Assembly: GCF_010731695.1 (NCBI RefSeq)
Contig: NZ_AP022586.1
Span: 1,798,001-1,862,000 of the forward strand
Direction of reading: 5' to 3'
DNA from: Mycolicibacterium litorale
GTDB taxonomy: Bacteria > Actinomycetota > Actinomycetes > Mycobacteriales > Mycobacteriaceae
Length of the DNA: 64,000 nt
The stretch's first letter is position 1, and each line of letters opens with the position of its first letter. The notes beneath the pieces were generated by a model. That model was not told the DNA's origin. It made no database searches and saw only the letters and a list, made by a program, of their open reading frames with translations. The position numbers and the translations under genes were made by a program. Positions 5,141-5,218 of the stretch are shown here, in pieces.

Positions 5141-5171
5141 GCGAAAGCCCCTGTGATAAGGGTTTTTTCGC
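5141..5171 (-). promoter_or_regulatory. Leader stem-loop upstream of the rox-like gene
   Basis: The bases between the rifamycin-associated element and the ribosome-binding site form an inverted repeat: GCGAAA at 5141-5146 pairs with TTTCGC at 5166-5171, continued inwards by CCC and GGG around a nine-base loop. On the transcript it would fold about 20 nt before the start codon. Whether it stabilises the mRNA, attenuates it or is incidental cannot be told. Confidence 0.4.
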
Positions 5172-5199
5172 TGAGATCGACGATTCTGGAGCACGACCG

Positions 5200-5218
5200 G
5201 GGTCTTGCCGCAAGCCCC
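5200..5218 (-). promoter_or_regulatory. Rifamycin-associated element (RAE)
   Basis: The plus strand reads GGGTCTTGCCGCAAGCCCC. Its complement differs by one base from the 19-bp consensus I recall for the element found upstream of rifamycin-inactivating genes in actinomycetes (GGGGCTTGCGGCAAGGCCC). It is a near-perfect palindrome, lies 80 bp upstream of the rox-like start codon, and is on the correct side to act in its promoter. The known element mediates induction by rifamycins. This is the only copy I noticed in the window. Confidence 0.82.

What the first reader, a model, noticed from the sequence alone, without database searches (positions are those of the whole stretch)
5141..5218. Rifamycin-associated element and leader hairpin in front of a rox-like gene
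The 19-bp palindrome at 5200-5218 differs by one base (in the complement) from the RAE consensus as I recall it. It lies 80 bp upstream of a gene that resembles rifampicin monooxygenase along its whole length. Two independent signals, enzyme and element, agree, so rifamycin-inducible inactivation is a strong prediction. The leader also has a stem-loop at 5141-5171 that is not part of the described element.
Basis: partly seen in the sequence, partly recalled or inferred. Interest (0 to 1): 0.72.

Follow-up and report, generated by a model that had tools for sequence, protein, structure and literature searches.

The report
Two-way rifamycin alarm promoter before rox
The 19-base palindrome in front of this rifamycin-destroying gene is real, and comparing it across many bacteria suggests that it is the shared heart of two promoters pointing away from each other, which could let RNA polymerase itself sense the drug.

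Summary
Window 3696-5120 (minus) is a full-length rifampin monooxygenase (rox) gene, and a rifamycin-associated element (RAE) lies at 5200-5218. The same chromosome has two more RAEs with 0-1 mismatch, before arr and helR.

The RAE is only the core of a larger, rigid element. In 121 exact-RAE sites (a capped list), the palindrome sits between two -10 boxes, each 19 bp from it. On the gene side the box is CAnnnT in 105 of 121 (TAnnnT in 0). On the other strand it is TAnnnT in 117, and at most once at any other spacer. Of 116 antisense sides, 41-55, by criterion, continue into a strong hairpin with T-rich tail; the window's does not. With the core centre relaxed, all 27 mycobacterial rox matches have the element.

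I read the RAE as one palindromic -35 shared by two back-to-back promoters: a weak one for the gene and a better antisense one. A 2026 paper calls the RAE mechanism unresolved and suggests an unknown transcription factor; that rival is not excluded. How rifamycin tips the balance is inferred.

The leader hairpin (5141-5171) is stable but not conserved as a structure.

The parts
3696..5120 (-). rox, rifampin monooxygenase, 474 aa, open frame without an internal stop
   Evidence: NCBIfam NF033145 896.8 bits, cut-off 800; PDB 5vqb, 5kow
5200..5218 (.). RAE, 19-bp near-palindrome; centre TTGC-S-GCAA gives a TTG--- box on either strand
5208..5213 (-). presumed sense -35, TTGCGG
   Evidence: sequence; 19-bp spacing kept across species
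5183..5188 (-). presumed sense -10, CAGAAT, 19-bp spacer
5176..5178 (-). presumed sense start site (from the usual distance to a -10 box)
   Evidence: inference
5205..5210 (+). presumed antisense -35, TTGCCG
   Evidence: sequence; 19-bp spacing
5230..5235 (+). presumed antisense -10, TAGATT, 19-bp spacer
5242..5243 (+). GG, presumed antisense start site; the matching gene-strand positions are C in 96% and 97% of the profiled exact-RAE sites and CC in 72 of 90 sites of the arm-free set
   Evidence: inference
5141..5171 (-). leader stem-loop GCGAAA...TTTCGC, not conserved as a structure
5125..5129 (-). GGGAG, likely ribosome-binding site; in the predicted leader fold this stretch pairs with the RNA's 5' end

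Best explanation
This is a rifamycin-inducible resistance gene (rox) driven by an RAE. The RAE is not a stand-alone 19-bp operator. It is the palindromic -35 box shared by two promoters that point away from each other: a weak sense promoter (TTGCGG-19 bp-CAGAAT) for rox and a better antisense promoter (TTGCCG-19 bp-TAGATT), which in many species would make a very short RNA that ends at an immediate terminator. Shown: the sequence architecture and its rigid conservation. Inferred: that both promoters are active, and that RNA polymerase itself is the sensor. Proposed step, not shown: without drug, polymerase keeps loading and firing the antisense promoter, so the shared -35 is mostly taken and rox is nearly silent. 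With little drug, this fast-cycling promoter soon traps a rifamycin-bound polymerase. That polymerase stays on the antisense -10 and start site but lets go of the strained (19-bp spacer) -35, so drug-free polymerases can now use the -35 for the sense promoter.
For: Sense CAnnnT at 19 in 105 of 121, at most 7 at any other spacer, sense TAnnnT 0 of 121. By genus or unit, 41 of 44 units among the named loci are all TAnnnT on the antisense side. A pattern of the two -10s and the 9-bp core alone hits 184 of 394 class genomes; I see one hit in the reversed control. With the sense -10 one base farther, 1 of 296 genomes hits; the same pattern at the right distance hits 79 of 197. Of 116 antisense sequences, 41 have a strong stem plus a T-run of 3 or more, against 3 of 116 shuffled and 0 of 116 sense leaders. 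B. subtilis rifampicin alarm promoters also pair a stronger antisense with a weaker sense promoter, and both antisense promoters have unusual 19-bp spacers (PMC12802891). A Markov model with -35 hand-over exceeds 2-fold induction in 26% of 4000 random parameter sets.
Against: No transcript was measured. The RAE arms outside the -35 hexamers (GGG 86 of 90, CCC 69 of 90, not required by the pattern) are conserved beyond what two -35 boxes need, which fits a bound protein. Simple mutual exclusion cannot give induction: at most 1.00-fold in 4000 parameter sets, so an unproved -35 release is needed. In B. subtilis, shortening the distance between the two promoters abolished inducibility, which the authors tie to steric interference (passage); here the promoters overlap. 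The window's copy lacks a terminator (antisense fold z +0.93), as do most of the 116 by the stricter criterion. The FEMS 2022 review reports a SENSE start site about 20 bp upstream of the RAE in M. smegmatis helD, near where I place an antisense start. Only 7 of 30 fetched arr loci have the element in its strict form.
Confidence: 0.5

Rival explanations
1. An unknown rifamycin-responsive transcription factor binds the RAE palindrome as a dimer and turns both overlapping promoters up or down.
For: The palindrome arms outside the -35 boxes are conserved. [quoted passage not shown] Two held papers suggest or discuss such a factor.
Against: I recognised no regulator gene among RAE-associated genes: of 113 downstream ORFs (8 of 121 sites gave none) 101 group with rox or other FAD monooxygenases, helR, rph, rgt, arr or one efflux gene; the 12 unassigned were not examined by family models. 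The neighbouring LuxR-type gene is found beside rox, within 1.5 kb, only in the own genome. Dyad-breaking centres occur in 10 of 113 sites (counted by eye) and in 3 of 27 rox loci. A dimer site by itself does not predict a rigid opposite-strand -10.
Confidence: 0.35
2. Two sense promoters in tandem (P1 upstream, P2 at the RAE), with P1 interfering with P2 until rifamycin blocks P1, as reported for rpoBC and considered for helD.
For: Sense start sites for M. smegmatis helD, as reported in the review.
Against: The conserved upstream box is a TAnnnT on the antisense strand at an exactly fixed distance from the RAE. A tandem promoter would not need that rigidity.
Confidence: 0.1
3. The RAE acts as an RNA hairpin in the leader.
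For: The palindrome could fold as RNA.
Against: The presumed sense start lies downstream of the RAE. Positions 4 and 16 show no pairing preference (G-A 32, G-G 20 of 90). No Rfam match at window 4900-5500.
Confidence: 0.04

Closest known systems
Rifamycin-associated element (RAE) of Actinobacteria (Spanogiannopoulos 2014, Surette 2022, Hurst-Hess 2022: not held; known here from passages of PMC8655204 and PMC10719064 and a section of PMC12802891)
   Same: 19-bp palindrome before rox, helR and other rifamycin resistance genes; overlaps a sense -35
   Different: Here shown to be the core of a longer fixed element with an opposite-strand -10 at the same 19-bp spacing, and in part of the species an antisense terminator
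Dual-promoter rifampicin alarm of B. subtilis helD and pps (PMC12802891)
   Same: Stronger antisense and weaker sense promoter; antisense spacer of 19 bp; antisense promoter of helD sensitive to initiating GTP (here the presumed antisense start is GG)
   Different: Convergent there, with 39 bp between the start sites; divergent and sharing the -35 here, so the published collision step cannot apply as it stands
Rifampin monooxygenase Rox (5vqb, 5kow)
   Same: Match over nearly the full length, over the curated cut-off
   Different: A new mycobacterial member; 27 of 396 genomes sampled in the genus have a match at E <= 1e-150, one of them partial

Membership tests
Rifampin monooxygenase (NF033145) | Whole-protein score over the curated cut-off | tested here: met
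   896.8 against 800 bits
Rifampin monooxygenase (NF033145) | Hydroxylates and linearises rifamycins | not testable with these tools
   needs an enzyme assay
RAE | 19-bp palindrome upstream of a rifamycin resistance gene | tested here: met
   the consensus letters are recalled, and sites found with them and with an arm-free pattern bear them out
RAE | Overlaps the -35 of the gene's promoter | tested here: met
   TTGCGG-19-CAGAAT at 5183-5213 minus; by sequence only
RAE | Rifamycin-inducible expression | not testable with these tools
   needs transcript measurement
B. subtilis-type dual-promoter alarm | Two convergent promoters | tested here: not met
   The two predicted promoters diverge and share the -35
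B. subtilis-type dual-promoter alarm | Stronger antisense promoter with 19-bp spacer | tested here: inconclusive
   The 19-bp spacer is met; the strength order is inferred from TAnnnT against CAnnnT, not measured
Antisense mini-transcript with immediate terminator | Stem plus T-run at the antisense start | tested here: not met
   Seen in 41 of 116 sites elsewhere, none at the window site

The most novel reading that the evidence does not exclude
Actinobacteria need no dedicated rifamycin-binding regulator: the RAE is a bidirectional -35 that makes RNA polymerase, the drug's target, its own sensor by trapping one drug-bound polymerase on a decoy antisense promoter and handing the shared -35 to the resistance gene.
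Probability: 0.3. Interest if true: 0.85.

Novelty: new variant of a known kind. Interest (0 to 1): 0.62.

Why it matters
How the RAE senses rifamycins is described as still to be elucidated in a 2026 paper (PMC12802891, discussion read). The architecture found here turns it into a direct test: either purified RNA polymerase alone responds on native RAE DNA, or a protein factor must be found. It would also place the actinobacterial rifamycin response beside the B. subtilis dual-promoter alarm as a second solution of the same kind.

Tried and rejected
Leader hairpin as a conserved regulator: among 27 mycobacterial rox leaders the mean folding z is -0.69 (13 long) and -0.90 (14 short). The window's own is -3.33, that of its closest relative L222 (85% identical protein) -0.17. 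By eye a hairpin of similar outer arms is also in L223. It may be lineage-specific; not pursued.

A 17-bp antisense spacer (TATA at 17): less well kept. TATA starts at spacer 17 in 96 of 121 sites, TAnnnT stands at 19 in 117 of 121.

Pure mutual exclusion of the two promoters: cannot induce in the model.

LuxR/AAA gene 5300-7909 as the regulator: beside rox only in the own genome among 27 loci, judged within 1.5 kb.

Mobile elements: no exact RAE in viral contigs. Rfam: none. Standard promoter scan: none, but it allows only 16-18 bp spacers.

Results against the reading: only 7 of 30 fetched arr loci (one of them the own genome; 57 of 296 genomes had arr) have the strict element. L057 and L109 fail both -10 boxes; L026 and L089 also fail and look like chance hits. 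L103 has no sequence on the sense side and counts among the 16 without CAnnnT.

Full report
What is there. The minus strand of 3696-5120 encodes a 474-aa protein that passes the curated rifampin monooxygenase model, 896.8 against 800 bits. Its best matches among solved structures are 5vqb and 5kow, over nearly the full length. The 19-bp RAE lies at 5200-5218, 80 bp before the start codon.

The genome. The window lies in a single 5.58-Mb contig. Searching it with the RAE pattern gives three sites with 0-1 mismatch: the rox site, one before arr (NF000318, 260.4 bits, cut-off 250) and one before helR (NF041258, 1333.5 bits, cut-off 1100). Sites with 3 mismatches are noise by the reversed control. 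So one chromosome holds a small RAE set of three different resistance strategies: oxidation of the drug, ADP-ribosylation of the drug, and target protection (functions by family name, not tested).

The RAE is the core of a longer element. Aligned on the palindrome they share far more than 19 bp. Counting at every spacer from 8 to 39 bp: on the antisense strand TAnnnT stands at 19 bp in 117 of 121 sites, once at 12 bp and at no other spacer. On the sense strand CAnnnT stands at 19 bp in 105 of 121, at most 7 at any other spacer, and TAnnnT at none. Of the other 16 sense boxes, 9 are GAnnnT or AAnnnT and one site has no sequence there. Nine sites had been turned by a consensus score; without them the antisense count is 108 of 112. 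By named genus or unit, 41 of 44 are fully TAnnnT on the antisense side. The three that fail are an Aerophototrophica site and two hits that look like chance, in a Euryarchaeota and a Rubrivivax bin. Streptomyces is over-represented (23 of the named sites).

A search that does not require the RAE arms, only the two -10 boxes and the 9-bp core, hits 184 of 394 class genomes, while I see one hit in the reversed control. That pattern excludes T as the first base of the sense box, so the absence of sense TAnnnT rests alone. A pattern with the sense -10 one base farther, set by mistake, hit 1 of 296; the intended one hit 79 of 197. In 90 fetched sites (30 fetched by the tool, 60 picked by me) the arms are still GGG in 86 and CCC in 69, so the arms are under selection too.

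In the genus, 27 of 396 genomes have a rox match at E <= 1e-150, one of them partial; in an earlier sample 9 of 198 were over the curated cut-off. Of the 27 loci, 24 have the element with TTGC.GCAA and all 27 with TTG..GCAA, at the same geometry. The three extra ones carry a centre that is no longer palindromic.

Terminator. From the presumed antisense start (gene-strand C in 96% and 97% of the profiled sites; CC in 72 of 90 in the arm-free set), the best hairpin begins at that very base in 81 of 116 sequences; starts at the first 12 bases were allowed. A strong stem followed by a T-run of 3 or more occurs in 41 of 116, against 3 of 116 shuffled and 0 of 116 sense leaders; with at least 4 T in 10 it is 55, 6 and 0 (one mononucleotide shuffle per site). 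There the antisense unit would make an RNA of roughly 25-35 nt (inferred). The window's own copy has no such terminator, so this is not a required part.

Reading. The simplest account of two -10 boxes at an identical fixed spacing on both sides of a palindrome containing TTG...CAA is two sigma-type promoters that share their -35. TAnnnT against CAnnnT suggests that the antisense promoter is the stronger. This resembles in logic the B. subtilis alarm, where a strong antisense promoter silences a weak sense one until low rifampicin arrests polymerase on the antisense promoter, and where both antisense promoters have unusual 19-bp spacers (PMC12802891: abstract and outline, passages, sections 37 and 50). 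It differs because those promoters converge, with 39 bp between the start sites. The same paper says that the RAE mechanism is open and mentions a possible unknown factor. The 2022 review (PMC10719064: passages and section 9) says that the RAE overlaps the -35 of a sense promoter and reports another sense start about 20 bp upstream. I could not see the underlying start data, and the strand of that upstream start deserves a second look.

Does it work? A Markov model shows that two mutually exclusive promoters alone never give induction (at most 1.00-fold in 4000 random parameter sets). If a drug-arrested polymerase on the antisense promoter gives up the shared -35, 26% of sets exceed 2-fold and 7.6% exceed 10-fold. 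This shows only that such a mechanism is possible. The transcription-factor rival remains serious because the palindrome arms are conserved beyond the -35 boxes.

That rifampicin induces such genes in mycobacteria is published: Arr rose 5.6-fold in M. smegmatis (passage of PMC13246000) and helD mRNA about 25-fold in M. abscessus (review). For rox of this genome nothing was measured.

Leader hairpin. It folds well (z -3.28 alone; leader z -3.33), and the predicted fold also pairs the ribosome-binding stretch with the RNA's 5' end. Among 27 rox leaders folding is on average unremarkable. I treat it as a lineage feature.

Novelty check. Nine searches of the held library showed, in the listings and the passages I opened, no description of an antisense promoter at the RAE. 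I could not look into the founding RAE papers: look-ups of the two 2022 papers and of a recalled DOI for the 2014 paper found nothing held. I cannot exclude that part of this is in them.

Noticed in passing
window 2598-3668: Aldo-keto reductase gene directly behind rox on the same strand (27-bp gap); the same neighbour occurs in 4 of 27 mycobacterial rox loci, own genome included. Possibly co-transcribed.
   Followed up: partly
L021 229-1797: An RAE before a DHA2-like MFS efflux gene in Actinoplanes aureus (below the curated cut-offs). I met no efflux gene named as RAE-linked in the passages I read.
   Followed up: partly
L052, L057: RAE before an arr-like ORF in a Xanthomonadaceae bin (both -10 boxes kept) and in Aerophototrophica (boxes not kept). 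Taxonomy of the bin not checked.
   Followed up: no
sites listed: Ten of 113 elements have a dyad-breaking centre (TGG 3, CCA 5, CGT 2, by eye); TGG and CCA are the same change in the two orientations.
   Followed up: partly
window 5300-7909: Large AAA-LuxR regulator gene just upstream of rox on the same strand; predicted antisense transcription from the RAE would run into its 3' end.
   Followed up: partly
window 5121-5182: The rox leader fold pairs the RNA's 5' end with the ribosome-binding stretch (z -3.02).
   Followed up: partly
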